Positions 1-28,197 of a DNA stretch of 29,534 bases are shown in pieces. The number at the start of each line of letters is the position of its first letter. Positions within the stretch are counted from its first letter, which is position 1. The DNA is from Prevotella sp. (GTDB lineage Bacteria > Bacteroidota > Bacteroidia > Bacteroidales > Bacteroidaceae), in the NCBI GenBank assembly GCA_024681875.1, contig JAILAA010000204.1, positions 1 through 29,534 of the forward strand, read 5' to 3'. The position numbers were made by a program, and so were the translations under genes. The notes under the pieces were generated by a model that saw nothing but the letters and a program-made list of their open reading frames with translations, was not told the origin of the DNA and ran no database searches.

Positions 1-1746
1 CTCATTGCCGACGAACACAGCCTCTACAGCTACGTCCCTCCCTCCCCTCAGCCCTTCGGACAGCCCCCCTCGGGCAGGGAGGCAGCTGTAACAAAGTTGG
101 CAAGCGGATTTAACCTTATCAAGGCACTGTTCATCGATCGATGGGATCGTCTGTGGCTTGCCACCTATCAAGGTCTCTACTGTTTTTTCAACCGACATTT
201 CGTCAATTACACACTCAGCGACAGCGACGACATTGCTCGTAGCGTCGGAGTTATGGCCACGGAGGAACACGGACTTACACGGAACATCTATGGGAATCCG
301 TGTTCATCCGTTGCAAATAAGAGGAAAATCCGTGGGAATCCGTGTTCATCCGTTGCAAATAATGCCGTGGCAAGTCCGGTGCTGGGGACGCTGAACGGAA
401 AGATTATCAGTGGCGGGCGGATAATCTATGACAACCCCAATGACTTCTTTGTGCCCAGCGCCGCCGTCATCGACAGTTGTGTGTATCTGGCTGGCCGCAG
501 TGACATTGCCTGCATCAAGGACAGCACGCTGCAATGGTTAGGCCTTCCCTTCGACCGCTACCAGTTCATCACCGAAGCCAACGGCCGCCTTGTCATCGGC
601 ACACGTCAGGTCATCGCCGTCTATAATCCGCAGACCGGAAGACTCGACACGCTCAGCACCGACATCCCCCACCCCTGGTGTGCAGCTGCCGACAACGAGG
701 GCCGATTATGGGTGGGTAGCACCTTCGGCCTGTCCCTCATAGAGAATCAGGAGACAGTGAGCCCCATACCTTTTCCTCAGAAACTCATTATAACCACGAT
801 GGAAAGCGACTCGCAGGGCGCCGTTTTCTTCGCCTCGTGCGACTCTCTGTTCCTTATCCGCAATGGTGAGGTTCATGAACTCAGCAGTCAGATACCCCAG
901 CTCAGCGGCCATGAGGTACGCTCGCTGCACGTGTCACCGAAAGGTTTTTTGGTGGTGGCTGCCATCGACGGACTCTTCGTGTGCCGTGTCACTGACGACT
1001 ACCGCCTCACCGACATCTGCTTTTTCAACCACCTGAACGGCTTCACGATTGTGGAACCACAGAAGGCACGAATGGCCGAAAGCACCGACGGCATAGTATG
1101 GCTTTGTGGACTAGAACAGGTAACGTCCTTCCGCCCTTCCGAGCTGGTGGCAGATGCCCAGGCTGACACCTTCATCTCCCCACCCATGCGCTGGTGGCAG
1201 CACTGGTGGGTCTGGCTCATCGGCCTTTTGTTGCTGACAGCAGTGATTTGGCTGACAGTAAGATGGATAGAGGAGCGACGTAGCCGGCGCAAACTGTTGC
1301 GTATACAGCGCCAGAAGCAGGAGCGTGAGCAACTCATCCGTGCCATCCGCGAAGAGGCGATGAAAGCAAACGATACACTCCTGGCCAAAGACATTGTGAA
1401 AATGACCGCCGCCACGCCCAAGCCGAAGCGACTCACCCTGCGTTCGCAGACCGGATCATTGGTAGTGGATGCCGATGACATCGTCTTCCTAAAAGCTGAC
1501 GGCAACTACACACAGTTGCACACCTTCTACAGCACAGATCTCGTGATGACGGGAATAGGCGCCATTGCGAAGCAGTTAGATGCGCCATACTTCGTGCGCG
1601 CCGACCGCAGCACGCTGGTAAACATCTGTTTTATCAGCCGCCTTGACACAGTCAACCGCAGCTGCATCTTCCGCTCACACGACGGCAAAGAATTGAAAAC
1701 CAATCTGATGCTGCCCGCATTTAAGCGACTGGCGGGCATCCTTTAG
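1..1746 (+). CDS. Membrane-anchored beta-propeller / LytTR transcriptional regulator (5' partial)
   Basis: The frame is open from base 1, so the N-terminus lies outside the window; the first possible in-window start (TTG at 97) is probably not the real one. The visible 581 residues hold two-component-regulator-propeller-like blades (for example LWLATYQGLYCF and LWVGSTFGLSLI), then one transmembrane helix at about residues 400-422, a basic coiled-coil stretch, and a C-terminal LytTR DNA-binding domain from about 486 (VFLKADGNYTQLHT, then FVRADRSTLVN). No histidine kinase or receiver domain is visible, so signal sensed by the propeller would have to pass directly through the membrane to the LytTR domain. 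It ends 39 bases before the corrinoid fusion gene on the same strand and could regulate or be co-transcribed with it; this is inference. The propeller carries two foreign-looking repeat insertions (36-82 and 260-362), both in-frame. Confidence 0.82.
   Translation, partial: LIADEHSLYSYVPPSPQPFGQPPSGREAAVTKLASGFNLIKALFIDRWDRLWLATYQGLYCFFNRHFVNYTLSDSDDIARSVGVMATEEHGLTRNIYGNPCSSVANKRKIRGNPCSSVANNAVASPVLGTLNGKIISGGRIIYDNPNDFFVPSAAVIDSCVYLAGRSDIACIKDSTLQWLGLPFDRYQFITEANGRLVIGTRQVIAVYNPQTGRLDTLSTDIPHPWCAAADNEGRLWVGSTFGLSLIENQETVSPIPFPQKLIITTMESDSQGAVFFASCDSLFLIRNGEVHELSSQIPQLSGHEVRSLHVSPKGFLVVAAIDGLFVCRVTDDYRLTDICFFNHLNGFTIVEPQKARMAESTDGIVWLCGLEQVTSFRPSELVADAQADTFISPPMRWWQHWWVWLIGLLLLTAVIWLTVRWIEERRSRRKLLRIQRQKQEREQLIRAIREEAMKANDTLLAKDIVKMTAATPKPKRLTLRSQTGSLVVDADDIVFLKADGNYTQLHTFYSTDLVMTGIGAIAKQLDAPYFVRADRSTLVNICFISRLDTVNRSCIFRSHDGKELKTNLMLPAFKRLAGIL
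36..82. repeat. GC-rich palindromic element inside the propeller/LytTR gene
   Basis: This C-run/G-run stretch starts with CCTCCCT and ends with AGGGAGG, with an inner part containing CAGCCCTTCGGACAGCCC. It is read in-frame as PPSPQPFGQPPSGREA, low-complexity sequence unlike a propeller blade. It is the most divergent member of the family found at 2852, 2961, 3965, 4071, 4991, 6162, 6209 and 16885. Confidence 0.5.
260..362. repeat. ATCCGTG-type inverted/direct repeat inserted in-frame
   Basis: A 30-base unit occurs at 291-320 and again, identical, at 333-362. The period is 42 bases (14 codons), so the reading frame is kept and the peptide GNPCSSVAN appears twice. The segment at 260-275 is a 14/16 inverted copy of the core AATCCGTGTTCATCCG at 295-310. 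The same sequence family recurs at 9441-9499. Confidence 0.85.
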
Positions 1747-1785
1747 TACACTCTCACCTCACACCCACACCTCTCACCCCATAAA
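1747..1785. repeat. CTCTCACC-type low-complexity repeat in the spacer
   Basis: The 39-base spacer between the regulator stop codon and the next ATG consists almost wholly of CTCTCACCTCACAC-type units. The reverse complement of an in-frame insertion in recF (10394-10428) has nearly the same sequence, so this is a dispersed family. Confidence 0.7.
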
Positions 1786-4740
1786 ATGAGCACCTGGAAA
1801 ACTAATCTCGAAGAAACGAAACAGCGATACATCGACTGGTGGAACCACAAAGGCATCGTGCTGAACATGTGGGAGCACTTCCAACAAGGCGTCATGCCTC
1901 ATGCCGATGTGCCCCAACCCAAGCCGCCTCGCGACCTGAACCAGAAATGGTTCGACCCCGTTTGGCGTGCCGACTACCTCGACTGGTACGTGGCCCACTC
2001 CTGTCTTAAGGCCGACATCCTGCCCGTAGCGAACACGCAACTGGGCCCCGGCTCGTTAGCCGCCATCCTCGGCGGCATCTTCGAGGGCGGCGAGGACACC
2101 ATCTGGATTCATCCCAACCCAAATTTCAGTGATGACATCGTCTTCGATCCGCAGCACCCCAACTGGCTCCTTCACAAAGACCTGTTGCGTGCCTGCAAAC
2201 GAAAGGCACGGGGCCACTACTACGTGGGAATGCCCGACTTGATGGAAGGCCTCGACGTGCTGGCCGCCCTGAAAGGCACCGACCAGGTGCTGATGGACAC
2301 GGTGATGCAACCCGAAGTAGTTGAGCGGCAAATGCAGCAGATCAACGATATCTATTTCAAGGTTTTCGACGAGCTCTACGATATCATCCGCGAAGGCGAC
2401 GAGATGGCCTTCTGTTACTTCTCCAGTTGGGCCCCGGGCAAGATGACGAAACTACAGAGCGACATCTCGACGATGATCAGTACCGACGACTACCACCGCT
2501 TCGTGCAGCCCTTCATCCGCGAGCAGTGCCAGAAGATTCCCTATACGCTCTATCACCTCGACGGCGTCGGCGCCATGCACCACCTCGACGCACTTTTAGA
2601 AATAGACGAGTTGAACGCCATTCAATGGACGCCGGGTGTGGGAGAGCCACAAGGTGGCAGCCCGAAGTGGTACGACCTCTACCGCCGCATCCTCGATGCA
2701 GGCAAGAGTGTCATGGCCTGCTGGGTGACACTCGACGAGTTGCGCCCATTGCTCGACGCCATCGGCACCGAGGGCGTCCACATCGAAATGGACTTCCACA
2801 ACGAGCAAGAGGTGGAGGAGGCGATGGAGATAGTGGAGAGGATGGAAAAAAGCCCCTCCCTTATAGGGAAGGGAGAAATTAGACTTGCAACAGACAGTGA
2901 TGTTGACAACAAGGTAGAGGAAATCATACAAATTGTAGAAAACTCTGCTGCAGAGGTAATCTCTCCCCTTCCTACAAGGGAGGGGCTGGGGGTGGGTCTG
3001 CAGGGGGAGGGTCTTCTTCTCCTCCTCGATGGTGCGATGGGCACGATGATTCAGCAGTACCATTTGCGCGAGGAGGACTATCGCGGGGCACGCTTCGCCA
3101 ATCATCCCATCGACCTGAAGGGCTGCAACGACGTGCTTTCGCTGACGGCGCCATTCATCGTGCGCGACATCCACCGCAAGTATCTCGCCGCTGGCGCCGA
3201 CATCATCGAGACGAACACCTTCAACGCACAACGCATCTCCATGGCCGACTATGGTCTGCAAGACCATGTACGCGACATCAACCTCGCCGCCGCCCGCCTC
3301 GCCCGCCAGTGCGCCGACGAGTTTTCCTCGTCGGACAAGCCCCGTTTTGTCGCCGGCAGCATCGGCCCTACCAACGGAACCACATCTGTTGCCACCAGTG
3401 ATAAGCCATTGTCGAAGGAAACAGTTCGCAATGCCTATGAAGAGCAGATAATGGCGCTGGCCGATGGCGGCGTAGATGTACTACTCATCGAAACCATCTT
3501 TGACGTGGAGAATGCCCGGTTAGCTATCGAAGCCGCTCAGAAGACAGCCCCGCAATTGCCCATCATGCTCAGTTTCTCGGTAGCCACCCCCGACGGCCAC
3601 AATATGTTAGGGCAGAACATTCCCGAATTTCTTTCTCACATCTCTCCCCTACCCGCTCAGCTCATTTCAATCGGCATTAACTGTGTGACAGACGTAACAC
3701 AGATGACGCCGCTCATCAAAGAGCTGGCCCGTTTCGGCAAAGGTGTCAGCTTCTATCCCAATGCAGGTTTGCCCAATGCCAAAGGGCAGTACACAAAAAC
3801 ACCTGAAAGCCTGCTGCAAGACTTATGGCCACTATTGGAGGGCCACCACCTCAGCATCGTCGGCGGCTGCTGTGGCACCACCGACAAGCATATAGCACTG
3901 ATGGCAAAGGCCATCGAGCCGGTGCCGGGGATTAGGCTGTCAGGAATGATTCCCCAACAACAGACTCTCCCCCAGCCCCTCCCTATCAGGGAGGGGAGGA
4001 ATGTCCTTGCTAATCTGCAAGACAAACTTGCTAAACAGAAAGATGACAGCTCGCCGATGAATGGAGTAGCCTCTCCCCTCCCTCACAGGGAGGGGCAAGG
4101 GGGTGGGTCTATAAAGGAGGCCATCATTGCCGGCGACAGCGCTGCCGCCATCGCTGCCACTCAGGAAGCCATCGCAACAGGCGAAGAGCCGCAGACGCTC
4201 ATCAACGAGCAGATGATTGGCGCCATGAGCGAGGTGGGCCACCGATTCCAGGAAGGCAAGGCCTTCGTGCCACAGCTGCTGATGGCAGGGCGCGCCATGA
4301 AAGCCGCACTGGGCGAGTTGCAGCCGCTGATGGCCGGTACGGCGAGGACATCGTTAGGCAAGGTGGTCATCGGCACGGTGAAGGGCGATCTGCACGACAT
4401 CGGCAAGAATCTTGTGGCCTCCATGCTCGAGGGCTGCGGCTTCGAGGTGGTAAACATCGGCATTGACGTCTCGGCCGACAAGTTCATCGAGGCCGTCCGC
4501 GAGAACCAGCCTGACATCCTTTGCATGAGCGCCCTGCTCACCACGACAATGGGCTATATGAAGGAGGTTATCGAGGCTTTGGAGAGAGCCGGCATCCGCA
4601 ACAAAGTGAAGGTGATGGTAGGCGGAGCCCCTGTCACACAGGGATTCGCCGACGAGATAGGCGCCGACGGCTACAGCGACAACGCCAACTCTGCCGTTAC
4701 TGTTGCCAAGCAATTGCTTGGGAAAACAAACACATTGTAA
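1786..4740 (+). CDS. Trifunctional corrinoid methyltransferase fusion: UroD-like + homocysteine S-methyltransferase + B12-binding
   Basis: Three domains of B12-dependent methyl transfer are fused. Residues 1 to about 395 are UroD-like (the fold shared by uroporphyrinogen decarboxylase, MtaA/CmuA-type methyltransferases and MetE). Residues about 412-715 are the homocysteine methyltransferase domain of MetH, with DGAMGTM at 415 and Zn ligands C633, C695 and C696 (GGCCGTT). Residues about 777-984 are a helical cap plus cobalamin-binding domain with the DxHxxG motif (D868, H870, G873; lower axial ligand H870). The MetH pterin domain and SAM-activation domain are absent. The likely route is methyl donor to corrinoid (UroD-like domain) and then to homocysteine, giving methionine in the cytoplasm; donor unknown. 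The UroD-like domain has H257-L-D259 where MtaA-type enzymes have HxC, so it lacks that Zn site. Both interdomain regions (356-412, 723-777) contain palindromic repeats. The start follows a 39-base spacer with no clear ribosome binding site. Confidence 0.88.
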   Translation: MSTWKTNLEETKQRYIDWWNHKGIVLNMWEHFQQGVMPHADVPQPKPPRDLNQKWFDPVWRADYLDWYVAHSCLKADILPVANTQLGPGSLAAILGGIFEGGEDTIWIHPNPNFSDDIVFDPQHPNWLLHKDLLRACKRKARGHYYVGMPDLMEGLDVLAALKGTDQVLMDTVMQPEVVERQMQQINDIYFKVFDELYDIIREGDEMAFCYFSSWAPGKMTKLQSDISTMISTDDYHRFVQPFIREQCQKIPYTLYHLDGVGAMHHLDALLEIDELNAIQWTPGVGEPQGGSPKWYDLYRRILDAGKSVMACWVTLDELRPLLDAIGTEGVHIEMDFHNEQEVEEAMEIVERMEKSPSLIGKGEIRLATDSDVDNKVEEIIQIVENSAAEVISPLPTREGLGVGLQGEGLLLLLDGAMGTMIQQYHLREEDYRGARFANHPIDLKGCNDVLSLTAPFIVRDIHRKYLAAGADIIETNTFNAQRISMADYGLQDHVRDINLAAARLARQCADEFSSSDKPRFVAGSIGPTNGTTSVATSDKPLSKETVRNAYEEQIMALADGGVDVLLIETIFDVENARLAIEAAQKTAPQLPIMLSFSVATPDGHNMLGQNIPEFLSHISPLPAQLISIGINCVTDVTQMTPLIKELARFGKGVSFYPNAGLPNAKGQYTKTPESLLQDLWPLLEGHHLSIVGGCCGTTDKHIALMAKAIEPVPGIRLSGMIPQQQTLPQPLPIREGRNVLANLQDKLAKQKDDSSPMNGVASPLPHREGQGGGSIKEAIIAGDSAAAIAATQEAIATGEEPQTLINEQMIGAMSEVGHRFQEGKAFVPQLLMAGRAMKAALGELQPLMAGTARTSLGKVVIGTVKGDLHDIGKNLVASMLEGCGFEVVNIGIDVSADKFIEAVRENQPDILCMSALLTTTMGYMKEVIEALERAGIRNKVKVMVGGAPVTQGFADEIGADGYSDNANSAVTVAKQLLGKTNTL
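2852..2875. repeat. GC-rich palindromic element, fusion gene copy 1
   Basis: CCCTCCCT and AGGGAAGGG arms flank a short TATA centre. It is read as SPSLIGKGE, a different phase from the other copies, and interrupts the C-terminal part of the UroD-like domain (residues 356-365). Confidence 0.75.
2961..3010. repeat. GC-rich palindromic element, fusion gene copy 2
   Basis: CTCTCCCCTTCCT, ACA, AGGGAGGGG, followed by a G-rich tail (CTGGGGGTGGGTCT). It is read as ISPLPTREGLGVG immediately before the homocysteine methyltransferase domain. The G-rich tail is shared with the copy at 4071. Confidence 0.85.
3965..4003. repeat. GC-rich palindromic element, fusion gene copy 3 (inverted orientation)
   Basis: The tail (CTCTCCCCCAGCCCC) lies on the left here, so the element is inverted relative to 2961 and 4071, yet it is still read as PLPIREG. 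It sits in the linker between the homocysteine methyltransferase and B12 domains. Confidence 0.85.
4071..4110. repeat. GC-rich palindromic element, fusion gene copy 4
   Basis: CTCTCCCCTCCCT, CAC, AGGGAGGGG with the tail CAAGGGGGTGGGTCT. It is read as ASPLPHREGQGGGS just before the helical B12 cap domain. Confidence 0.87.
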
Positions 4741-4744
4741 GACG

Positions 4745-5521
4745 CTATGTTTCAGTTGTCCGAGAAAAATCCGCAGGCTTCGGATTTTTGTCCGACCTGT
4801 TCGGATTTTTGTCCGAAGCCTGCGGATTTTTTCGGACGATTTTGACACGCTTATAGCATTTCGACATATTGCATAATCCACAAGAGTAGTCAAGCCGACT
4901 AACTTCTTTTCCTAAACCGATAAGACCACTTACACTCTTGATGGGCACCATGAGTGAACTATCGGTGAGCCGTACACCACAGGTCTGATTCCCCTCCTTC
5001 GGGAAGGAGGGGTGCCCAAAGGGCGGGGTGGTAGCGAAAGCGGAGAAGAGCAGTTGCTGCTCACTGACATGCCAGCCACAATAGCCGGGAGAGAAACGGT
5101 TGGTGTGGTGCCAACCCAGTTTGTCAATATTCTGCTGCAGGTGTTCCTCCATCCTGTCGGCACATTTTTCGGCAATGACGCTGCCCAGCGCATCGGCTAT
5201 GAACACACGCACCATGTCGTCCTCCTCCTTCAGCTGCTGTTGCCAGGCCTCGTATTCCACTCCGGCAGTACAGATGAACAGGGCATAGGCCTCACTGCCG
5301 CGCAACTGTCGCTCGATGATGCTTCCCATGTTGAAAGGAGGCAGGTCGCGAGTGACGAAGAAACAGAATCGCGGCTGCAACCACTGGCGCACCTCGTTGA
5401 CCACAGCCTCCGTCTCGTGCTGCGTCTGTTCGTCAGGCGTAGTGCCACCGTAGCCCATCTGGTCATAGATGTCGGCAGGTGTGATGAAAAGGTCGTTGAA
5501 GGATAACTGCTTAATAGTCAT
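4745..5521 (-). CDS. Stand-alone corrinoid-protein reactivation protein (MetH activation-domain family)
   Basis: The 258-residue protein resembles the S-adenosylmethionine-dependent activation domain at the C-terminus of MetH. It has the R-x-x-x-G-Y signature (R142, G146, Y147 in NRFSPGYCGW) and the downstream TCGVRLTDSSLM-type segment. In canonical MetH this domain re-methylates oxidised cob(II)alamin using SAM and an electron donor. Here it is separate, which fits the absence of such a domain from the convergent fusion gene. Near the C-terminus is a CGLCxxxxCxxR cluster (about residues 214-224) that could bind a metal or iron-sulfur cluster. It follows the MtaA-like gene by 16 bases, so they are probably one operon. 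A palindromic element inserts about 14 residues (HPSFPKEG region) before TCGVRL, and the last 30 or so residues come from an inverted repeat (4758-4837), so the native end may be near CYKR. Confidence 0.82.
   Translation of the reverse strand: MTIKQLSFNDLFITPADIYDQMGYGGTTPDEQTQHETEAVVNEVRQWLQPRFCFFVTRDLPPFNMGSIIERQLRGSEAYALFICTAGVEYEAWQQQLKEEDDMVRVFIADALGSVIAEKCADRMEEHLQQNIDKLGWHHTNRFSPGYCGWHVSEQQLLFSAFATTPPFGHPSFPKEGNQTCGVRLTDSSLMVPIKSVSGLIGLGKEVSRLDYSCGLCNMSKCYKRVKIVRKNPQASDKNPNRSDKNPKPADFSRTTET
4758..4837. terminator. Perfect 20-bp inverted repeat between convergent genes; possible bidirectional terminator
   Basis: AAAAATCCGCAGGCTTCGGA at 4765-4784 is exactly complementary to 4812-4831. 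The stem extends six more pairs (4758-4763 with 4832-4837) past a single bulged G. The centre holds a second small hairpin (TCCGA/TCGGA), and the 17-base unit TTCGGATTTTTGTCCGA occurs twice, 21 bases apart (4779 and 4800). T-runs lie on both strands, as expected for a shared terminator of convergent genes. Unusually, it also encodes the C-terminal tail of the minus-strand gene (KNPQASDKNPNRSDKNPKP). Confidence 0.65.
4991..5032. repeat. GC-rich palindromic element inside the reactivation-protein gene
   Basis: CCCCTCCTT, CGGG, AAGGAGGGG, followed by TGCCCAAAGGGCGGGGTGG. It is read on the minus strand as PPFGHPSFPKEG, in a loop between two conserved parts of the activation domain. Confidence 0.8.
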
Positions 5522-5537
5522 GATACAAATGGGACTG

Positions 5538-6617
5538 CTACTGTGAATGCCGGGAATTGTACTCTTTCAGAGTTTGGAAGAATACATCCATGTTGGCTTC
5601 GGGTGTGTGTGGTGGCGTGTCACAGCCACTGCTCAGCACGAAGTTCGGGTGGCTCTCCATCTTTCCTAAGAGGTCGAGCACTGCGTGGCGCATCTGTTCG
5701 GGCGTACCGTCCTTGAAGACGCTGACGGGGTCGATGTTGCCCATAGCGAGAGCTGTTGGCGGCACGCCGGCGATAACCTCTTCCATTTTGCATTTATTAC
5801 CGAAGTGATAGGCGGCGGCGCCGGTTGTGACCATTGCCTTGGTGCAGTGGCCCGTATTGCCGCAGTTGTGCAGGATAAGCATGAACTCCTCGTCCTGCAC
5901 CTGCTCAACAATCTGCCTGACATACTGAGAAGAAAACGTGCGGCAGTCGTCGTCAGACAGCAACCCTGCTGCAGGCTCAGCCATCAGCACGCCGTTGGCA
6001 CCCGTCAGCTTCAGCGCCTGACAATACTTGGTGATAAACTGTGTACACTTGGCCAGCAGTTCGTGAGCTGCTTCAGGCTGTTCATAAATCAGCACCATGA
6101 TGTCTGAGAGGTCGTAGAGTCTACCCGCTAATGAAAAGGGACCGATGCAACCGGCAAAGAAGACCCGCCCCCACCCTTTCCCTGCAGGAAGGGGAGAAGT
6201 TACTTTTTGGCCCCCTCCATCCGCCCCCAAATGGGGGAGGCTATTGGCGACAAGGAGGTTGGCCTTTAGATATTCAGGGATGCGCCCAGCATGGAGCGAC
6301 GGCACCTGCAGGTTGCTGATGTCTGCCGCATTGTGCAGCAAACGTCCGACGACGGCTGGCACAGCATCATCGCTGAAGGCAATCTTTGCACCAAAAGCCT
6401 CGGCCTCGACCGTAAGGTCCATGATGGTACACGCAGCAGCGCTGGGGTATTTCCTTGCCAACGCAACTACAGCCTCGGCATGGACGCGCCCGTCGCTGAC
6501 AGCCTCACGCACGGTATGACCATTCATCTCGATGCCCGGGTGCGTCATTACTGGTATGGCCAGCACTTCTTTCCTCTGAAGGACACTGGCCACCCATGTT
6601 TTCATATTGATGCTCAT
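5538..6617 (-). CDS. MtaA/CmuA-type (UroD-family) corrinoid methyltransferase
   Basis: This 359-residue protein belongs to the UroD superfamily branch that moves methyl groups between corrinoid proteins and thiols. The family Zn site is present: H250-x-C252 (LHNCGNTG) and C332 (SSGCDTPP). The core motif AGCIGPFSLAGRLYD is also visible. The start is ATG at 6617, which overlaps the stop codon of the upstream peptidase gene as ATGA; a start at 6650 would lie well inside that gene. It is followed after 16 bases by the reactivation protein, and the fusion protein ends nearby on the other strand, so the three probably act on the same corrinoid. The real acceptor or donor is unknown; a role in methionine synthesis or demethylation is inference. 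About 25 residues (PHLGADGGGQ to KGWGR) directly before the AGCIGPF motif come from two adjacent palindromic elements. Confidence 0.83.
   Translation of the reverse strand: MSINMKTWVASVLQRKEVLAIPVMTHPGIEMNGHTVREAVSDGRVHAEAVVALARKYPSAAACTIMDLTVEAEAFGAKIAFSDDAVPAVVGRLLHNAADISNLQVPSLHAGRIPEYLKANLLVANSLPHLGADGGGQKVTSPLPAGKGWGRVFFAGCIGPFSLAGRLYDLSDIMVLIYEQPEAAHELLAKCTQFITKYCQALKLTGANGVLMAEPAAGLLSDDDCRTFSSQYVRQIVEQVQDEEFMLILHNCGNTGHCTKAMVTTGAAAYHFGNKCKMEEVIAGVPPTALAMGNIDPVSVFKDGTPEQMRHAVLDLLGKMESHPNFVLSSGCDTPPHTPEANMDVFFQTLKEYNSRHSQ
6162..6203. repeat. GC-rich palindromic element inside the MtaA-like gene, copy 1
   Basis: On the minus strand it is TCTCCCCTTCCT, GCA, GGGAAAGGG, then a G-rich tail ending GGGTCT. 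It is read as TSPLPAGKGWGRV, the same phase as the copies at 2961 and 4071. Confidence 0.85.
6209..6240. repeat. GC-rich palindromic element inside the MtaA-like gene, copy 2
   Basis: CCTCCCCC, ATTT, GGGGGCGGATGGAGGGGG on the minus strand, a variant of the same family placed a few bases from the copy at 6162. It is read as SLPHLGADGGG. Confidence 0.7.
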
Positions 6618-9428: not shown

Positions 9429-9440
9429 CTTATCGTATTT

Positions 9441-9499
9441 GCAAGGGATGAACACGGATTCGCACGGATCGTCAGTATTAATCCGTGTCCATCCGTTGC
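9441..9499. repeat. ATCCGTG-type inverted repeat at the recF 3' end
   Basis: The arms at 9441-9460 and 9480-9499 are complementary at 18 of 20 positions. The family is the same as that at 260-362. It fills the recF/DUF721 spacer and also encodes the last residues of RecF (EQRMDTD) and its stop codon (9478-9480, minus). Confidence 0.85.
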
Positions 9500-10647
9500 T
9501 CAATTATTCCATCATTGACATGAAAGAGGCGATAGTCGCAGTCGCCATGAGAGAGGATCTGGTCCAAGTGGTCGCGGTTCGTGTCGGTAATGAATATCTG
9601 GCCGAACTGCTGACTAGCCACCAAATGAATGATCTGCTCCACACGATGTGCATCCAGCTTGTCGAAAATGTCGTCGAGAAGCAAGATGGGATGCCCCACC
9701 CCATTCTCCCTATAGGACTCATCGCCCTCATGGAATCCATTAGTCTCATTAGACTCATCCAAGATCTTATACTGTGCCAGTTTAAGGGCAATGACAAACG
9801 TCTTCTGCTGTCCCTGGCTGCCCTCACGGCGCATGGGATGACCGTTGATGAGAATCTCCAGGTCGTCGCGGTGGATGCCATGCAGTGAATAGCCCACAGC
9901 GCGGTCTTTATGGCGGTCGCGCCGGATGACGTCGAGCAGCGGCCCGCGCTGGCAATGTGAGACGTAGCTGAGTGACACGTCCTCATGGCCGTCGCTCACC
10001 CTCTGGTAGAAATGCTGGAAGACAGGCTCCAAGGCGGCGACAAAGGTGCTGCGCTTTGCCGACACCGTCTCGCCATAGCGCGCCATTTCCTCCTCAAGAA
10101 GCTCCATCAGCTGCGCGTCGGGCTCGTGATCCTCATCACGCAACAAAGCATTGCGCTGCAGCAACGCTTTGTTGTAGCGGTTGAGGGCATCTATATACGC
10201 ATGGTCGCGCTGCGCAATCGTCTGATCCATCAATCTACGGCGTTCATCGCTGGCACCTTCAATCAGTGACGTGTCAGCAGGCGACACCATGACCAGCGGA
10301 ATCAAACCGATGTGTTCAGACAGCCGCTGATATTCCTTTCCATTACGCTTGAAATGCTTCTTCTGCCCCTTCCTCATACCACAGAACAACTTAAGAGGTG
10401 AGAGGTGAGAGGTGTGAGGTGAGAGGTAGCTACCCTCCAACACGAAAAAATCCTCATCGTGGCGGATGGCAAGCGCATCCTGATTGCTGCTGGACGAGTG
10501 GCAGAAACTAAGAAAATAGATGGCGTCAAGCACGTTGGTCTTTCCCGCTCCGTTGTCGCCTATAAGACAATTTATTTTCGGCGAGAAATGCATCGCAGCC
10601 GACGCAATATTCTTGTAATTGGCAATGGAAAGTTGTTCTAAAAGCAT
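9478..10647 (-). CDS. recF: DNA replication and repair protein RecF
   Basis: RecF is an SMC-like ATPase that loads RecA at single-strand gaps. The Walker A motif is GDNGAGKT (residues 30-37), and the Walker B/D-loop region is ILLLDDIFDKLDAHR (about 318-332). At 389 residues it is longer than the usual 360 to 370. Two repeat-derived insertions explain this: about residues 74-85 (LSPHTSHLSPL) and about 295-316 (ESNETNGFHEGDESYRENG), the second immediately before the Walker B strand. The final residues come from a third repeat. It is divergent from the TPR gene; a -7 box TAAATTTG (10658-10665 minus) precedes the ATG closely. Confidence 0.95.
   Translation of the reverse strand: MLLEQLSIANYKNIASAAMHFSPKINCLIGDNGAGKTNVLDAIYFLSFCHSSSSNQDALAIRHDEDFFVLEGSYLSPHTSHLSPLKLFCGMRKGQKKHFKRNGKEYQRLSEHIGLIPLVMVSPADTSLIEGASDERRRLMDQTIAQRDHAYIDALNRYNKALLQRNALLRDEDHEPDAQLMELLEEEMARYGETVSAKRSTFVAALEPVFQHFYQRVSDGHEDVSLSYVSHCQRGPLLDVIRRDRHKDRAVGYSLHGIHRDDLEILINGHPMRREGSQGQQKTFVIALKLAQYKILDESNETNGFHEGDESYRENGVGHPILLLDDIFDKLDAHRVEQIIHLVASQQFGQIFITDTNRDHLDQILSHGDCDYRLFHVNDGIIEQRMDTD
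9700..9765. repeat. Imperfect ~10-base repeat inserted in-frame in recF, before Walker B
   Basis: On the minus strand there are repeated TGAGTCTAATGAGACTAATGG-like units (ATGAGTC, ATGAGAC, ATGAGTCCTA). They encode a polar, acidic run (SNETNGFHEGDESYREN) with no place in the RecF consensus. Confidence 0.55.
10394..10428. repeat. CTCTCACC-type tandem repeat inserted in-frame in recF
   Basis: AGGTGAGAGGTGAGAGGTGT followed by GAGGTGAGAGG on the plus strand. The minus strand reads LSPHTSHLSP in RecF. It belongs to the same family as the spacer at 1747-1785. Confidence 0.75.
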
Positions 10648-16540: not shown

Positions 16541-18388
16541 ATGAAAAAACTATTCCTTTCCCTTGTTCTTACTGCTTTTACGGCAATGGCAGGCACAGCT
16601 GCTGAGGTGCCGCTGATACAGAATGTAATGGCCCGTCACATCACCTCGCTTAACGGCCCGTGGCACTACATTGTTGACGTACAGGAGGAGGGATACTACG
16701 ACTACCGCATGAATCCCACGCGATGGGGATTCTTCATCAACGCCAAGCCGCAACGGCCCGAAGACCTTATCGAATATGACTTTGACAAGGCGCCCGTGAT
16801 GCAGATTCCCGGCGACTGGAACACGCAAGACGACCGTCTGTTTTTCTATGAGGGCACTGTGTGGTTTAAGAAATCTTTCCATCATTCCTCCGCCTCTTCC
16901 GAAGAGGAAGGAGACAAGGTCCTACTCTATTTCGGCGCTGCCAACTACGACTGCCGCGTATGGGTGAACGGGCGCGAGGCGGGTCACCACATTGGCGGCT
17001 TCACACCGTTTAACTACGACGTTACAGACCTGCTGAAGGAGGGTGAGAACGTCGTCATCGTCAAGGTGGACAACAAGCGCAAGGCTGAGGCCGTGCCCAC
17101 GCAGATCTTCGACTGGTGGAACTATGGCGGCCTGACACGCGACGTGCTTCTCGTGCGCGTACCATATTTATATATAGAGGACTATAGCCTCAAACTGCAG
17201 AAGCAGAACAGCCCCAAGTGGCGTGAGGTGGACTTCACGGCCAGCCTGAGCCAGAAAGAAGCCGGACGCACGGTGATGCTGAACATCCCCGAACTGCGCC
17301 TAAAGCAGGCGTGCGTCACCGATGCCGAGGGTAAGGTCAGCACCACGCTGCGCATACCCGCTAAGAAACTCTCGCTTTGGAGCCCCGACACCCCCAAGCG
17401 CTACCGTGTTGAACTGTCGCTCGCCGCTGATGCAGCCTCCGGTTCTGAGGTCGGTGACTTTGTTGCCGACAGCATCGGCTTTCGCACCATCGAAGCCCGC
17501 GGCAAGCAGATTCTTCTCAACGGCGAGCCTGTCTTCCTGCGCGGCATCAGCATCCATGAGGAGAAAGCCCACGGCGGCGGGCGAGCCAACAGCACCGCCG
17601 ACGCCCATGAACTGCTGAGCTGGGCCAAGGAGCTGGGCTGCAACTTCGTACGCCTGGCCCACTATCCGCACAACGAGTATGCCATCCGCGAGGCCGAGCG
17701 CATGGGCATCATGGTGTGGAGCGAGATTCCCTGCTACTGGACCATTGCCTGGACCAACCCCGACACCTACGCCAACGCACAGCGACAGCTCACCGACATG
17801 ATCAGCCGCGACAAGAACCGCGCCAACATCATCATTTGGAGCATCGCCAACGAAACGCCGCACTCACCACAGCGCGACGACTTCCTCGGCCGTCTGGCAC
17901 AACATGCCCGCTCACTCGACAACACGCGCCTCATCTCAATGGCGATGGAGGTGACAGGTGCCTCCAACTACAAGAACCGACTGCACGACAATATGCACGA
18001 GTATGTCGATGTTGTATCGTTCAACCAATACATCGGCTGGTACCGTGACGTCAATGATGCGCCGAAGATGGAGTGGGAAATTCCCTACGACAAGCCCGTC
18101 ATCGTCAGTGAATTCGGCGGCGGTGCCCGCTATGGCCTGCATGGTGCCGAGAACCAGCGCTGGACAGAGGAGTTCCAAGCCAAACTCTACCGAGAGAACA
18201 CTGCCATGCTTGATAAGATCGATGGACTCTGCGGCACCACGCCCTGGATCCTAAAGGACTTCCGTTCGCCGCGCCGCGTGCTTAACGGCATACAGGACTA
18301 CTATAACCGTAAAGGACTCTTCTCTGACAACGGAGAAAAGAAACAGGCCTTCTACATTTTGAAACAATGGTACGAAGGGAAGAAGTAA
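16541..18388 (+). CDS. Exported glycoside hydrolase family 2 enzyme (beta-galactosidase / beta-glucuronidase type)
   Basis: The 615-residue enzyme starts at ATG 16541 with a signal peptide (MKKLFLSLVLTAFTAMAGTAA); the upstream ATG at 16496 would precede the promoter. It shows the GH2 layout of jelly-roll N-domain (FGAANYDCRVWVNGREAGHHIGG), immunoglobulin-like domain and TIM barrel (FLRGISIHEE). The acid/base Glu is E438 (IWSIANETP) and the nucleophile is E524 (VIVSEFGGG). The short length and missing C-terminal domains point to a glucuronidase-like or small galactosidase-like member rather than LacZ; the substrate cannot be fixed by eye. A short palindrome (16885-16914) adds polar residues (HHSSASSEEEG) in the jelly-roll domain. 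The stop codon abuts the TAAGAAG tandem array. Confidence 0.92.
   Translation: MKKLFLSLVLTAFTAMAGTAAEVPLIQNVMARHITSLNGPWHYIVDVQEEGYYDYRMNPTRWGFFINAKPQRPEDLIEYDFDKAPVMQIPGDWNTQDDRLFFYEGTVWFKKSFHHSSASSEEEGDKVLLYFGAANYDCRVWVNGREAGHHIGGFTPFNYDVTDLLKEGENVVIVKVDNKRKAEAVPTQIFDWWNYGGLTRDVLLVRVPYLYIEDYSLKLQKQNSPKWREVDFTASLSQKEAGRTVMLNIPELRLKQACVTDAEGKVSTTLRIPAKKLSLWSPDTPKRYRVELSLAADAASGSEVGDFVADSIGFRTIEARGKQILLNGEPVFLRGISIHEEKAHGGGRANSTADAHELLSWAKELGCNFVRLAHYPHNEYAIREAERMGIMVWSEIPCYWTIAWTNPDTYANAQRQLTDMISRDKNRANIIIWSIANETPHSPQRDDFLGRLAQHARSLDNTRLISMAMEVTGASNYKNRLHDNMHEYVDVVSFNQYIGWYRDVNDAPKMEWEIPYDKPVIVSEFGGGARYGLHGAENQRWTEEFQAKLYRENTAMLDKIDGLCGTTPWILKDFRSPRRVLNGIQDYYNRKGLFSDNGEKKQAFYILKQWYEGKK
16885..16914. 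repeat. Short palindromic element inside the GH2 gene
   Basis: CCTCTTC (16893-16899) pairs with GAAGAGG (16901-16907), flanked by TCCTCCG and AAGGAGA. It resembles the family copy at 4991 in shape but is less GC-rich. It is read as SSASSEEEGD in a loop. Confidence 0.5.
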
Positions 18389-18451
18389 GAGGGAAGATGG
18401 AAGAGGTAAGAAGTAAGAAGTAAGAAGTAAGAAGTAAGAAGGAAGAAGAAC
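18389..18451. repeat. TAAGAAG heptamer tandem array
   Basis: Five perfect TAAGAAG units occupy 18407-18441, followed by GAAGAAG; degenerate units reach back to the GH2 stop codon (AAGAAGTAAGAG). The array fills the spacer up to three bases before the next ATG. Confidence 0.92.
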
Positions 18452-19915
18452 ATGAAAATAGGATTTGACAACGAGAAATATCTCAAAATTCAGTCAGAGC
18501 ACATCCGTGAACGCATAGCGCAGTTTGACGGCAAGCTCTATTTAGAGTTGGGCGGCAAGCTCTTCGACGACCACCACGCCTCGCGCGTACTGCCTGGCTT
18601 CAAGCCTGACTCCAAGCTCCGTATGCTGGCACAGCTGCAGAACGAGCTGGAGATTGTCATCGTGGTCTCGGCCGACGACATAGAGAAGAACAAGGTGCGC
18701 GCCGACCTGGGCATTACCTACGACGAGGATGTGCTGCGCTTGCGCGACGAGTTTATGAAACGCCAGTTCATGGTGGGCAGCGTCGTCATCACCCATTACA
18801 ACGGCCAGCACGCCGCCGACCAGTTCCGCCACCGTCTGGAACGTCTCGACATACGGTCCTACGTGCATTATCTTATCGACGGCTATCCGCACAATGTGGA
18901 ACTGATAGCCAGCGACGATGGCTTCGGCAAAAACGACTATGTGGAGACATCACGACAGCTCGTCGTCGTCACCGCCCCTGGTCCTGGCAGCGGCAAGATG
19001 GCCGTCTGTCTCAGCCAGCTCTACAACGAGAACAAGCGCGGTATCCACGCCGGATACGCCAAGTTTGAGACTTTCCCCGTATGGAATCTGCCACTGAAGC
19101 ACCCAGTGAACATCGCCTACGAGGCCGCCACTGCCGATTTGAACGACGTGAATATGATTGACCCGTTCCATTTGGAGGCCTACGATAAGATTGCCGTCAA
19201 CTACAACCGCGACATCGAGATATTCCCTGTGCTCAACGCACTCTTTGAAGGTATCTACGGAGGCAGCCCGTATAAGTCGCCTACCGACATGGGCGTCAAC
19301 ATGGTCGGCTTCTGCATCAGCAACGACGAGGTGTGCTGTAATGCATCGCGCGAAGAGATCATCCGCCGCTACTACGATGCCACGAACAAGATGGCCGAGG
19401 GTGCCGACAATGAGAACGAGGTGAACAAGATACTGATGCTGTTCAATCAGGCGAAGATTACCACCGCCTACCGCCGCGTCACCGTAGCCGCTGCCGCGAA
19501 GAAGGAGCTGAGCGGGCACACTGCTGCCGCCATGGAGCTGGACGACGGCACCATCATCACTTCAAAGTCATCGCCCCTACTGGGTTGTTCAGCCGCCCTC
19601 CTGCTAAACGTCATGAAGCACTTGGCCGGCATCGCCCACGAGGCAAAACTCATACCGCAGAGCCTCATAGAGCCGGTGCAGAAGACGAAGACCGAATATC
19701 TGGGCGCAAGGAATCCACGACTCCACACCGACGAGGTGCTGGTGGCGCTGAGCGTGCTGAGCCGCACCGACGAGCAATGCCGTCGCGCACTGGAACAGTT
19801 GCCCCGTGTACGCTACTGCCAGGTGCACAGCACCGTAATGCTGAGCGAGGTAGACCGCAAGATCTTCAAGAAACTGGGCTGCGGCCTCACCTGCGACCCT
19901 GTCAAGAAGAAGTAA
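18452..19915 (+). CDS. DUF1846 family protein
   Basis: The 487-residue cytosolic protein matches the DUF1846 family in length and in motifs such as GFDNEKYLKIQSEHI at the N-terminus, FDGKLYLELGGKLFDDHHASRVLPGF (broken here as FDGKLYLELGGKLFDD and HHASRVLPGF) and the glycine-rich P-loop-like TAPGPGSGKMA (about residues 172-182). Late conserved segments are SPLLGCSAALLLN and EYLGARNPRLHTDEVL. Structures of family members are known but no reaction has been assigned. It is separated from the GH2 gene only by a heptamer array, and from panE by an AT-rich repeat region. No signal peptide or transmembrane helix. Confidence 0.92.
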   Translation: MKIGFDNEKYLKIQSEHIRERIAQFDGKLYLELGGKLFDDHHASRVLPGFKPDSKLRMLAQLQNELEIVIVVSADDIEKNKVRADLGITYDEDVLRLRDEFMKRQFMVGSVVITHYNGQHAADQFRHRLERLDIRSYVHYLIDGYPHNVELIASDDGFGKNDYVETSRQLVVVTAPGPGSGKMAVCLSQLYNENKRGIHAGYAKFETFPVWNLPLKHPVNIAYEAATADLNDVNMIDPFHLEAYDKIAVNYNRDIEIFPVLNALFEGIYGGSPYKSPTDMGVNMVGFCISNDEVCCNASREEIIRRYYDATNKMAEGADNENEVNKILMLFNQAKITTAYRRVTVAAAAKKELSGHTAAAMELDDGTIITSKSSPLLGCSAALLLNVMKHLAGIAHEAKLIPQSLIEPVQKTKTEYLGARNPRLHTDEVLVALSVLSRTDEQCRRALEQLPRVRYCQVHSTVMLSEVDRKIFKKLGCGLTCDPVKKK

Positions 19916-25964: not shown

Positions 25965-26076
25965 CGTTATGTCGTTATTTCGTTATTACGTTATGTCGTT
26001 ATTACGTTATGTCGTTATTACGTTATGTCGTTATCACGTTATTACGTCATTACGTTATTTCCTTGTCACGTTATTT
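25965..26076. repeat. CGTTATNN octamer tandem array
   Basis: Fourteen consecutive octamers, mostly CGTTATTA, CGTTATGT or CGTTATTT; between 25981 and 26028 the pair CGTTATTACGTTATGT is repeated three times without change. The array fills the spacer between two GH43 genes, and its last unit contains the stop codon of the upstream gene (26071-26073). There are no spacers, so it is not CRISPR. Confidence 0.95.
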
Positions 26077-28197
26077 CGAGGAAAGCGTTACGTTATAATT
26101 CGTGACAGGTTTGCCCTGCTCGTCAAGGAAACGGACGCAGAAGTCGCTCATGCCCGGGCCGTTGATGATGGCACCGCGCAGAATGTTTCGGCCTTTCTTC
26201 AGCGTGAGACGCTGCGACATGGCGTCGTCCTTCACCATGCGCCGGTCGCCGCTGAGCAGCAGGGCTTCCTCGCCGTTGAGCCACCACATCGAGGCTGAGT
26301 TGGAGCCAACGGCAAGGCGCACGTTCTCGATGTCTTCGTCGCAGTCGATGATGGTGACTGCCCAGAAGAGCACGCCGTAGACCTTCTCTCCGTATTTCTC
26401 GGCGAAGCGAAAGAGCTTCACGTTAAACATGTTGCTTTCCAAGGCGTGCCACGTCAGCGTTTGCTTCACGGTCTTCACCTTCGGGCCCTCAGGCATCTGC
26501 TGGGCACCACGACCAAAGCCTGCGGGGGCCTGCTCCTGCTGGAACACGGCCGTCACCTTCTGGCCATTCTTGGGCAGGATGGTCTGCTGGCCTTTGAAGT
26601 ATTCGCGATTAAAGTGCTCGCGCAGATAGCTGTCGGTGAAGACGGTATTGCCGCTGTTGGGTTTGTCAATGGGCTCCAAGAGCATCCAGCGGCGGATGAA
26701 GCCTTCGTCGTCGGGGTGCGATGGCATCGCACCAGACGGGACGGAGGTGAAGTAGTCGGGGCGGTTCTTGAACTGCACCCAGTCAACACTAAGCGCGCCG
26801 TTGCCCTCGTTGGTAATGACGAGGTCGGTAACGCCCTTAGGTGTGTACTCAAGGTTAGCGGCCTGCGAGAGCCACTGGTTAGTGAGATCACGACGGAAGC
26901 GGGCCATCATAGGGTCGGTGGTCGGCTCGGGCTTCACCGTCAGCTTGATGCGGGCAATGACCTTGCCTTTTTCACTCTTCTCGCGGATACTGAACTCGGT
27001 GTTGTCGGCAGCCTTCACGTTGATAATCAGATAGCCGTCCTTGATGCAGCTGAAGTCTACGTCGTTGTATTTCAGCCAGCTGCCCTTTGTCGGCAAGGTA
27101 GCCTGATAGCTGCGGAAGGTGTTCACAGTGTCGATGAGCTCCTCAGTCACATCGCTGCTGGCAGTGCTGAAGCGGTCAATCTCAATCTTCTCCGTAGCCT
27201 TGTTGATGCCTACGCCTCGCAGGGTTTGCTTCACCTCCTGGATGGTGCCGTCGGCATTGAAGTAAAGCTTCTCAATGCAGGCAGAGCGGCGCTTGTCGTC
27301 GTTCGGAGAGAAATAGTTGTGGTGATAGAACAGGTACCATTGGCCCTGGTAGTTGACAATGCTGTGGTGGTTGGTCCAGCAACCGTTGGGCTGCTCGGCC
27401 ATGATCAGTCCCTTGTATTCGTAGGGCCCCATCGGATTCTTGCTCATGGCGTAGCCAAGAACTTCAGTGTTCTCCCTCACATACGGATAGGTCAGATAAT
27501 AGTTGCCGTTGTATTCGAAGGCAAACGGTCCCTCGGCCTGACGGTTGGGCAGGTCCTTGAGGCAGTTGACGCCCATCATCTCAAACTCGCGGTCACCAAA
27601 CTTCACCATCTCGGTCGGGGTGTCGTCGGCCAGCTCCTTCATGTTGGGCTTGAGCTTGGCGCAACGTCCATTGCCCCAGAAGATGTAGGCATTGCCGTCG
27701 GAGGCCTGAAGCACGCATGGGTCGATGCCGTTGATGCCCTTGATAGGCTCCGGCTCAGGGATGAACGGCCCTGTGGGACTGTCGGCAATGGCAACACCTA
27801 CGCCGAAGCCTCGCATGGCCCCATTAGGTGTTGACGGGAAGTAGAAATAATACTTGCCATTTCTCTCCACGCAATCGGGCGCCCACATGGAATAGGAATT
27901 GGGCCTTACCCAAGGCACCTTGTTCTGCGTGACGATGACGCCGTGGTCGGTCCAGTCGGTCAGATTATCCGACGAGAACACATGATAGTCTTCCATGCAG
28001 AACCAGTTCGGGCGAAGATTGGCGCCCTCCGGCGTAGAAGGATCTGGCGGGAAGATGTCGTGTGAGGGGTAGAGATAGACGCGCCCATTGAAGACACGAG
28101 CCGTCGGGTCAGCCGTGAACTGGTCACGGATAATTGGATTCTGAGCCGCCAGCATAAGCGGCATTCCCAAGAGCAATAAGCCGATGATTCTCTTCAT
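26071..28197 (-). CDS. Exported GH43 enzyme with CBM6-like and extra C-terminal domains
   Basis: The signal peptide (MKRIIGLLLLGMPLMLAAQ) is followed by a GH43 propeller with catalytic base D30 (TADPTARVF), YSMWAPDCVERNGKYYFYFP and acid E222 (QAEGPFAFEYNGNYYLTYP). The middle (about residues 360-480, ending ALSVDWVQFK) looks like a CBM6-type xylan-binding module. The last 200 or so residues, with WMLLEPIDKPNSGNTVFTDS near the start and SASMWWLNGEEALLLSGDRR later, form a further beta-rich region I cannot name. The likely role is xylosidase/arabinofuranosidase action on arabinoxylan. It is first in a probable GH43-GH43-GH51 operon and divergent from the GH10 gene. Confidence 0.88.
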   Translation of the reverse strand: MKRIIGLLLLGMPLMLAAQNPIIRDQFTADPTARVFNGRVYLYPSHDIFPPDPSTPEGANLRPNWFCMEDYHVFSSDNLTDWTDHGVIVTQNKVPWVRPNSYSMWAPDCVERNGKYYFYFPSTPNGAMRGFGVGVAIADSPTGPFIPEPEPIKGINGIDPCVLQASDGNAYIFWGNGRCAKLKPNMKELADDTPTEMVKFGDREFEMMGVNCLKDLPNRQAEGPFAFEYNGNYYLTYPYVRENTEVLGYAMSKNPMGPYEYKGLIMAEQPNGCWTNHHSIVNYQGQWYLFYHHNYFSPNDDKRRSACIEKLYFNADGTIQEVKQTLRGVGINKATEKIEIDRFSTASSDVTEELIDTVNTFRSYQATLPTKGSWLKYNDVDFSCIKDGYLIINVKAADNTEFSIREKSEKGKVIARIKLTVKPEPTTDPMMARFRRDLTNQWLSQAANLEYTPKGVTDLVITNEGNGALSVDWVQFKNRPDYFTSVPSGAMPSHPDDEGFIRRWMLLEPIDKPNSGNTVFTDSYLREHFNREYFKGQQTILPKNGQKVTAVFQQEQAPAGFGRGAQQMPEGPKVKTVKQTLTWHALESNMFNVKLFRFAEKYGEKVYGVLFWAVTIIDCDEDIENVRLAVGSNSASMWWLNGEEALLLSGDRRMVKDDAMSQRLTLKKGRNILRGAIINGPGMSDFCVRFLDEQGKPVTNYNVTLSSK

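What the first reader, a model, noticed from the sequence alone, without database searches (positions are those of the whole stretch)
36..6240. Eight GC-rich palindromic elements in four adjacent genes, all inside coding sequence
Elements built on CCCTCCCT-x3-AGGGAGGGG lie at 36, 2852, 2961, 3965, 4071, 4991, 6162 and 6209, with one more distant relative at 16885. All are in-frame and free of stop codons, and none lies in an intergenic region of this window. Rickettsia palindromic elements are the known parallel for repeats that spread through protein-coding genes.
Basis: partly seen in the sequence, partly recalled or inferred. Interest (0 to 1): 0.78.

Follow-up and report, generated by a model that had tools for sequence, protein, structure and literature searches.

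The report
Translated palindromic repeats with a nuclease
Short GC-rich palindromes sit in frame inside protein genes of rumen Prevotella, and relatives of these repeats bracket a small nuclease gene that can itself sit in frame inside essential enzymes, which points to mobile DNA that survives by being translated as part of host proteins.

Summary
The core observation is real. Five half-elements of one palindromic family (CAGACCCACCCCCAnCCCCTCCCT-loop-AGGGAGGGGAGnnnTTAC) lie in frame in two genes of this Prevotellaceae-like window. Five relatives' genomes hold 30-65 half-element matches each. Of 124 units classified, 72 are inverted pairs (commonest span 115-118 nt); 87 units lie inside genes, 23 at gene edges, 14 between genes, near random placement. 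Hosts include GuaA, LeuA, DnaG, AlaRS and MetH. New here: DUF559 (Vsr-like) nuclease genes of the genus are bracketed by inverted GC-rich hairpins (32 of 41 loci; 0 of 140 control genes). Genomes with DUF559 are enriched for the repeats (odds ratio 9.7 for 10 or more copies; Y1 transposase 1.4, not significant). The nuclease can itself sit in frame inside LeuRS, IleRS, MetRS, MetH and other enzymes, with no splicing domain found in eight scanned. Best reading: DUF559 is the mobile parent, the window's copies are miniature or end-only derivatives, and insertions that stay translatable survive. Movement by the nuclease is inferred, not shown.

The parts
2852..2884 (+). half-element (truncated: the match lacks the outer GACCCACCCC tail) encoding SPSLIGKGEI; left member of a pair whose interior is the host linker helix
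   Evidence: (E 1.6e-6); interior resembles the linker of orthologues
2952..3000 (-). half-element encoding ISPLPTREGLGVGL; right member of the same pair
   Evidence: (E 1.3e-11)
3961..4009 (+). half-element encoding QTLPQPLPIREGRN; left member of the second pair, in linker 2
   Evidence: (E 1.4e-11)
4062..4111 (-). half-element encoding ASPLPHREGQGGGS; right member of the second pair
   Evidence: E 3.1e-12; also matches the end of a DUF559 nuclease locus, L211, E 6.5e-6
6160..6208 (+). single half-element in the URO-D gene, encoding QKVTSPLPAGKGWGRV on the gene's strand; also at the same place in L003
   Evidence: E 7.5e-12; orthologue comparison
6209..6241 (-). second hairpin of a different type beside it, part of the same insert; resembles by eye the ends of DUF559 locus L263
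   Evidence: sequence; L263 ends; likeness judged by eye, no automated hit
4979..5032 (-). hairpin insert of a third type, 14 extra residues in the Met_synt_B12-like protein
   Evidence: absent in 39 of 39 orthologues; not found by the outside profile
34..87 (+). GC-rich insert of about 14 residues in the propeller/LytTR protein (limits approximate)
   Evidence: absent in L002, replaced by a different insert in L003, the only two orthologues found
1786..4740 (+). host gene 1: N-terminal part without a Pfam match, homocysteine S-methyltransferase and two B12-binding domains; both pairs lie in its two interdomain linkers
   Evidence: Pfam; 80 orthologues; inserts fall at residues about 356-405 and 726-775; the model has pLDDT < 50 at 358-374, 385-397 and 726-773
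4745..5521 (-). host gene 2: Met_synt_B12 activation-domain-like protein
   Evidence: Pfam
5538..6617 (-). host gene 3: URO-D family protein
   Evidence: Pfam; gene limits
1..1746 (+). host gene 4: two-component propeller / LytTR protein (start outside the window)
   Evidence: Pfam

Best explanation
The repeats are translated, in-frame copies of a mobile palindromic element. The full-length element is an inverted pair of hairpin half-elements, about 116 nt, open in two frames of one strand. Its parent carries a DUF559 (Vsr-like, EDxHD-type) nuclease gene between the same kind of ends. The nuclease is thought to cut a target and let repair copy the element, or one end of it, into the break. Insertions land at many sites in genes; those that stay in frame, in a readable orientation and in a linker or surface loop persist. 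Shown here: the family, its spread inside genes, orthologues without it, hairpin-bracketed nuclease genes, co-occurrence across genomes, and in-frame nuclease insertions in enzymes. Inferred: that the nuclease moves the miniature copies, the cut-and-copy step, the loop preference beyond the few cases compared, and that host proteins keep working.
For: (1) Spread: 65, 52, 52, 51 and 30 model matches at E<=1e-3 in five relatives' genomes; a strict pattern has 10-52 matches in each of seven genomes and 0 for the reversed control. (2) Inside genes: 87 of 124 units inside, 23 at an edge, 14 intergenic; random 115-nt placement in the same regions gives 78/16/6 %; 69 of the 87 have at least 100 nt and clear coding signal on both sides. 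Hosts by Pfam in 20 proteins scanned: AlaRS, GuaA, LeuA, DnaG, MetH, FeoB and others. (3) Readable: the consensus is open in 2 of 6 frames, both on one strand; of 37 in-gene pairs tested 22 lie in that orientation, 3 in the other, 12 unclear, but 12 copies, chosen in gene orientation, made the consensus, so the independent part is smaller. (4) Orthologues without them: 1786-4740 gene, URO-D, activation-domain gene, GuaA. (5) DUF559 loci have inverted hairpins around them: 32 of 41 at E<1e-5, 0 of 140 control genes. (6) In 200 genomes of the genus DUF559 and the family co-occur: any match 100/21/31/48, p 4e-10; 10 or more 67/54/9/70, odds ratio 9.65, p 1.4e-10; Spearman 0.62 on capped counts. 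Y1_Tnp: odds ratio 1.39, p 0.31 for 10 or more; 0 of 6 Y1 loci have a half-element nearby. (7) In G045 11 of 30 matches have exactly the hairpin of the nuclease gene's ends, 9 of them elsewhere. (8) Nuclease in frame in enzymes; 202 of 237 proteins kept have at least 100 residues on both sides of the nuclease, and 113 of these have hairpin-type linker motifs on both sides.
Against: G001 and G006 have 52 and 51 matches and no PF04480 match, and 9 of 79 DUF559-free genomes have 10 or more; many are MAGs, so gaps or loss are possible, but another mobiliser is not excluded. 9 of 41 DUF559 loci gave no flanking repeat at E<1e-5: one is a 33-residue fragment, one a short contig-end locus, one has weaker repeats (E 7.8e-5), one has half-elements by profile only, five have no evident reason. 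Insert length is a multiple of three in only 23 of 44 measurable in-gene pairs. No target-site duplication and no clean empty site at DNA level were found. Any-copy association with Y1 is weak but nominally significant (p 0.036). Kinship was not corrected. No activity, transcript or peptide was seen.
Confidence: 0.7

Rival explanations
1. The repeats are REP/REPIN-like elements moved by a RAYT (Y1, HUH-type) transposase, and the DUF559 genes are passengers that happen to sit between repeat copies.
For: Half-elements in inverted pairs look like REPINs; 111 of 200 genomes have a Y1_Tnp match; any copy versus Y1 gives odds ratio 1.92, p 0.036.
Against: 10 or more copies versus Y1: odds ratio 1.39, p 0.31; versus DUF559: 9.65, p 1.4e-10. 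0 of 6 Y1 loci have a half-element nearby. 32 of 41 DUF559 loci have matched inverted ends, of different hairpin types in different loci, which a passenger would hardly show. The consensus carries neither a GTAG nor a CGTC tag.
Confidence: 0.12
2. Neutral accumulation: hairpin DNA is scattered by replication or repair errors such as template switching, without a dedicated enzyme, and loops and linkers merely tolerate it; the same linkers also hold simple repeats in other species.
For: The two linkers of the 1786-4740 gene hold different repeats in different species; another repeat at 256-361 is also in frame. Adjacent halves 100-300 nt apart are '+-' in 8 of 8 cases, and several of these enclose host sequence.
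Against: A full-length form with a conserved interior, 30-65 half-element matches per genome, and hairpin-matched nuclease genes point to an element with a parent.
Confidence: 0.13
3. The inserts are removed before the protein is finished (self-splicing RNA, ribosome hopping, or protein splicing).
For: Insertion inside conserved domains of essential enzymes would be harmless if removed.
Against: Removal at the RNA level would not need an open frame, yet 87 of 124 units sit in genes whose frame stays open through them, though my gene caller favours open frames. No Hint or intein domain among the Pfam matches of 8 nuclease-bearing proteins. No Rfam family reaches its threshold in the window.
Confidence: 0.05

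Closest known systems
Rickettsia palindromic elements (RPE)
   Same: Palindromic repeats inserted in frame inside genes of known function and tolerated as extra peptide (PMC3733652, passages and section 15 read; the rest recalled).
   Different: Different lineage; here paired GC-rich hairpins, and nuclease genes with the same kind of ends; as far as I recall no parent gene is known for RPE. RPE sequences were not compared.
REP / REPIN elements and RAYT transposases
   Same: Short hairpins, often as dimers, many copies, a cognate enzyme family; some intragenic copies are known (PMC3733652, section 15 read).
   Different: REPs are mostly intergenic (PMC3733652) while these are mostly intragenic; no GTAG/CGTC tag; linked to DUF559 more than to Y1.
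EDxHD / Vsr-like homing endonucleases (I-Bth0305I)
   Same: The DUF559 domain of L286 matches PDB 3r3p, 'Mobile intron protein', E 6.6e-5, and 3hrl, E 6e-16; that 3r3p is I-Bth0305I is recalled. PMC9403480 (passages read) files a DUF559 gene in the EDxHD family. Insertions beside the same conserved motifs recur (by eye).
   Different: No intron or intein seen around it; it is bracketed by hairpins and left inside the host protein, with miniature copies lacking the gene.
Inteins
   Same: In-frame insertion of a nuclease in essential enzymes.
   Different: No splicing (Hint) domain among Pfam matches of 8 proteins, so the insert probably stays in the protein.
MITEs
   Same: Small, without genes, inverted ends, with larger relatives that carry a gene.
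   Different: The larger relative carries a nuclease rather than a DDE transposase; hairpin ends; no target duplication seen.

Membership tests
Rickettsia palindromic elements | palindromic repeat inserted in frame in protein-coding genes, absent from orthologues | tested here: met
Rickettsia palindromic elements | sequence kinship to a described RPE family | not tested
   no RPE sequence was compared; Rfam gathering scan of the window gave 0 matches
REP (GTAG or CGTC superfamilies) | GTAG or CGTC tag at one end | tested here: not met
   consensus of 12 half-elements has GTAA on the inner side and neither tag; tags from the title and passages of PMC3733652
REP (GTAG or CGTC superfamilies) | mostly intergenic | tested here: not met
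   14 of 124 units intergenic
REPIN/RAYT system | association with a Y1 (RAYT) transposase | tested here: inconclusive
   10 or more copies vs Y1: odds ratio 1.39, p 0.31; any copy 1.92, p 0.036; 0 of 6 Y1 loci have a half-element nearby
MITE | inverted ends, no gene of its own, larger relative with matching ends | tested here: met
MITE | target-site duplication | tested here: inconclusive
   none seen; no clean empty site available
EDxHD / Vsr-like homing endonuclease | sequence kinship of the nuclease domain | tested here: met
   3r3p E 6.6e-5, 3hrl E 6e-16
EDxHD / Vsr-like homing endonuclease | site-specific cleavage and homing | not testable with these tools
   only indirect: same-site insertions in MetRS and MetH of different contigs (by eye)
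Intein | Hint-type protein-splicing domain | tested here: not met
   no such Pfam match in 8 nuclease-bearing proteins

The most novel reading that the evidence does not exclude
A separate class of mobile element in Bacteroidota: a DUF559 (Vsr-like) nuclease between GC-rich hairpin ends that inserts in frame into essential genes and stays in the finished protein as a tolerated extra domain, with hairpin-encoded Pro/Gly linkers, and that mobilises swarms of 50-120 nt derivatives which decorate proteins genome-wide. It would be a splicing-free counterpart of inteins with its own MITE-like satellites.
Probability: 0.55. Interest if true: 0.93.

Novelty: new variant of a known kind. Interest (0 to 1): 0.85.

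Why it matters
What moves palindromic repeats that sit inside protein genes is, as far as I know, open for the Rickettsia elements. Here a concrete candidate enzyme is tied to such repeats by matched ends, co-occurrence and hairpin type. The nuclease-bearing form inside LeuRS, IleRS, MetRS and MetH would be a third way, besides introns and inteins, for a nuclease gene to live inside an essential gene. It would explain odd Pro/Gly-rich inserts in predicted Bacteroidota proteins and give DUF559, a family named only by number, a testable role.

Tried and rejected
Rejected: (a) conserved protein segments: orthologues show hypervariable linkers or no such insert. (b) A known structured RNA: Rfam gathering scan of the window, 0 matches. 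(c) RAYT as mobiliser: weaker or no association. (d) Intein: no Hint domain in 8 proteins. (e) A first, laxer palindrome pattern (2 mismatches per arm) gave 194 matches against 158 in a Markov resample and was dropped as uninformative. (f) 16885 as a family member: not supported.

Led nowhere: an exact insertion boundary or target duplication from GuaA DNA of seven genomes; a clean mod-3 rule for insert length (inside genes 23/12/9 with 5 unmeasured; at edges 6/6/4 with 1 unmeasured; intergenic 3/0/0 with 3 unmeasured). Blast of 33 nuclease-locus ends against the window hit only near 2987 and 4097, not at 36, 4991 or 6209; 10 shuffles gave 0 hits. Nine literature searches listed nothing, judged by titles and abstract starts, that described hairpin-bracketed DUF559 elements or translated palindromes in Prevotella; passages were read in PMC9403480, PMC12907096 and PMC3733652 and section 15 of the last. 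The library holds only open-licence papers.

Limits: genes for searches were called by my own script, which favours open frames. Fetched regions are the better-scoring matches (about E<=2e-6) of five of the seven relatives' genomes searched; a few contig-end matches were left out by choice. The 140 control genes come from L001-L080, not from the DUF559 genomes. In one search, L281, L282, L284 and L288 were not scanned with Pfam; L281, L284 and L288 are named by eye and L282's host was not identified.
Full report
What is in the window. The window comes from a Prevotellaceae-like genome: 235 genome-contig stretches encode relatives of its 1786-4740 protein; of the best 80 kept, 72 are titled Prevotella or Prevotellaceae, mostly MAGs, best segments 60-79 % identical. 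The window's own genome is not held. Pfam sees a homocysteine S-methyltransferase and two B12-binding domains after an N-terminal part without a match; the 80 orthologues match over nearly the whole length, apart from one cut by a contig end, so the fusion itself is old. Its two interdomain linkers vary strongly in length and content.

The element. Twelve copies from five genomes align to a half-element of about 50 nt, consensus CAGACCCACCCCCAnCCCCTCCCTGTnAGGGAGGGGAGAGGTTACTTT. Half-elements occur alone or as inverted pairs with the CAGACC ends outside: in the fetched regions and the window, adjacent halves less than 100 nt apart are '+-' in 64 cases and '--' in 1. Pairs span 94-300 nt, most often 115-118, and 20 pairs of 112-120 nt align; about a dozen of them share a recognisable interior. 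A profile without the window's copies finds five half-elements in the window at E 1.6e-6 to 3.1e-12.

Genome-wide spread. A covariance model (R1) gives 65, 52, 52, 51 and 30 half-element matches at E<=1e-3 in G003, G001, G004, G006 and G002. A strict pattern gives 10-52 matches in each of seven genomes and none for the reversed control. I fetched 97 regions around the stronger matches, called genes with my own periodic-Markov script (90 % coding in L001-L080) and classified 124 units, three of them the window's: 87 inside a gene (49 pairs, 38 single), 23 at a gene edge, 14 intergenic. Random placement of 115-nt segments in the same regions gives 78, 16 and 6 %. 69 of the 87 remain when at least 100 nt and clear coding signal are required on both sides. 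So genes are only mildly avoided. By contrast, most REPs lie between genes (PMC3733652, section 15 read).

In-frame insertion. Inserts read as peptides such as QTHPQPLPAGRG...SPPSQGGAGGGS. Pfam scans of 20 host proteins place them in AlaRS, GuaA, LeuA, MetH, DnaG, FeoB, ABC transporters, KDO transferase and glycosidases, several within a single conserved domain. The consensus full-length element is open in two of six frames, both on one strand; of 37 in-gene pairs tested, 22 lie in that orientation, 3 in the other and 12 are unclear. The consensus was made from 12 copies that I had chosen in gene orientation, so this bias is partly built in. In GuaA, G004 carries a copy of about 117 nt within the glutaminase (GATase) domain, where G002, G005, G007, G015 and G021 have no such insert and others have different short ones. 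In the URO-D gene, the window and L003 share the family's insert and the other 38 proteins compared do not; in the activation-domain gene 39 of 39 others lack the window's insert. The predicted structure of the 1786-4740 protein puts most of both inserts in segments with pLDDT below 50 (mean 74.9, pTM 0.47).

The nuclease. Three wide '+-' pairs (in L135, L150 and L176) enclose a gene that PF04480 (DUF559) matches at the same places. In seven genomes PF04480 has 12 matches, one a 33-residue fragment; inverted GC-rich hairpin repeats lie around the other 11, five of them of the window's family in '+-' order, one of these five (L208) seen by profile rather than by blast. With a fixed blast test on 41 DUF559 loci (these 12 and 29 from 200 genomes of the genus), 32 have an inverted repeat at E<1e-5 between the 600-nt flanks; of 140 control genes none has. 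The nine failures are a fragment, a short contig-end locus, one with weaker repeats (E 7.8e-5), L208, and five without an evident reason. By a loose motif, 21 of 33 end sequences share the C-rich-tail-plus-hairpin layout.

Association. In 200 genomes of the genus, DUF559 occurs in 121 and R1 matches in 131. Both 100, DUF559 only 21, R1 only 31, neither 48, p 4e-10; for 10 or more R1 matches 67/54/9/70, odds ratio 9.65; Spearman 0.62 on capped counts. The same genomes give for Y1_Tnp (111 of 200) odds ratio 1.39, p 0.31 for 10 or more and 1.92, p 0.036 for any. Kinship was not corrected. Hairpin types agree: in G045, 11 of 30 matches have exactly the hairpin of the nuclease gene's ends, 2 at that gene and 9 elsewhere; in G171 and G188 the nuclease gene's hairpin also recurs elsewhere, often in G171 and in one pair in G188 (read by eye).

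Reading. The window's copies are end-derived or miniature relatives of a nuclease-bearing element that is tolerated inside proteins. The link from nuclease to movement rests on association and matched ends only. Two facts do not fit well: genomes with many copies and no DUF559 match (G001, G006 and 9 of 79 in the survey), and half-element pairs that enclose host coding sequence yet keep the '+-' orientation, as at 2852-2999.

Noticed in passing
window 256-361 and 9433-9499: A second, unrelated repeat (CCGTGTTCATCCGTTGC...) is in frame twice in the first gene and occurs once more, inverted, at 9433-9499; the orthologue in L002 lacks the residues.
   Followed up: partly
window 25965-26084, 18380-18455, 10393-10426: Short tandem repeats of 7-8 nt units: the first two at gene junctions, the third inside the 9478-10647 gene. 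Simple repeats also fill the linkers of orthologues of the 1786-4740 gene in other species.
   Followed up: no
window 4765-4831: A 20-nt perfect inverted repeat (AAAAATCCGCAGGCTTCGGA) inside the 3' end of the 4745-5521 gene, read in frame.
   Followed up: no
L114 4259-4519, L161 3471-3721, L204 2501-2789, L124 5313-5515: Inverted half-element pairs that seem to enclose host coding sequence (glycosidase, KDO transferase, others; judged by eye) rather than the element's interior.
   Followed up: partly
P0013 (MetH, 1549 aa): A methionine synthase with two separate DUF559 domains inserted in frame.
   Followed up: no
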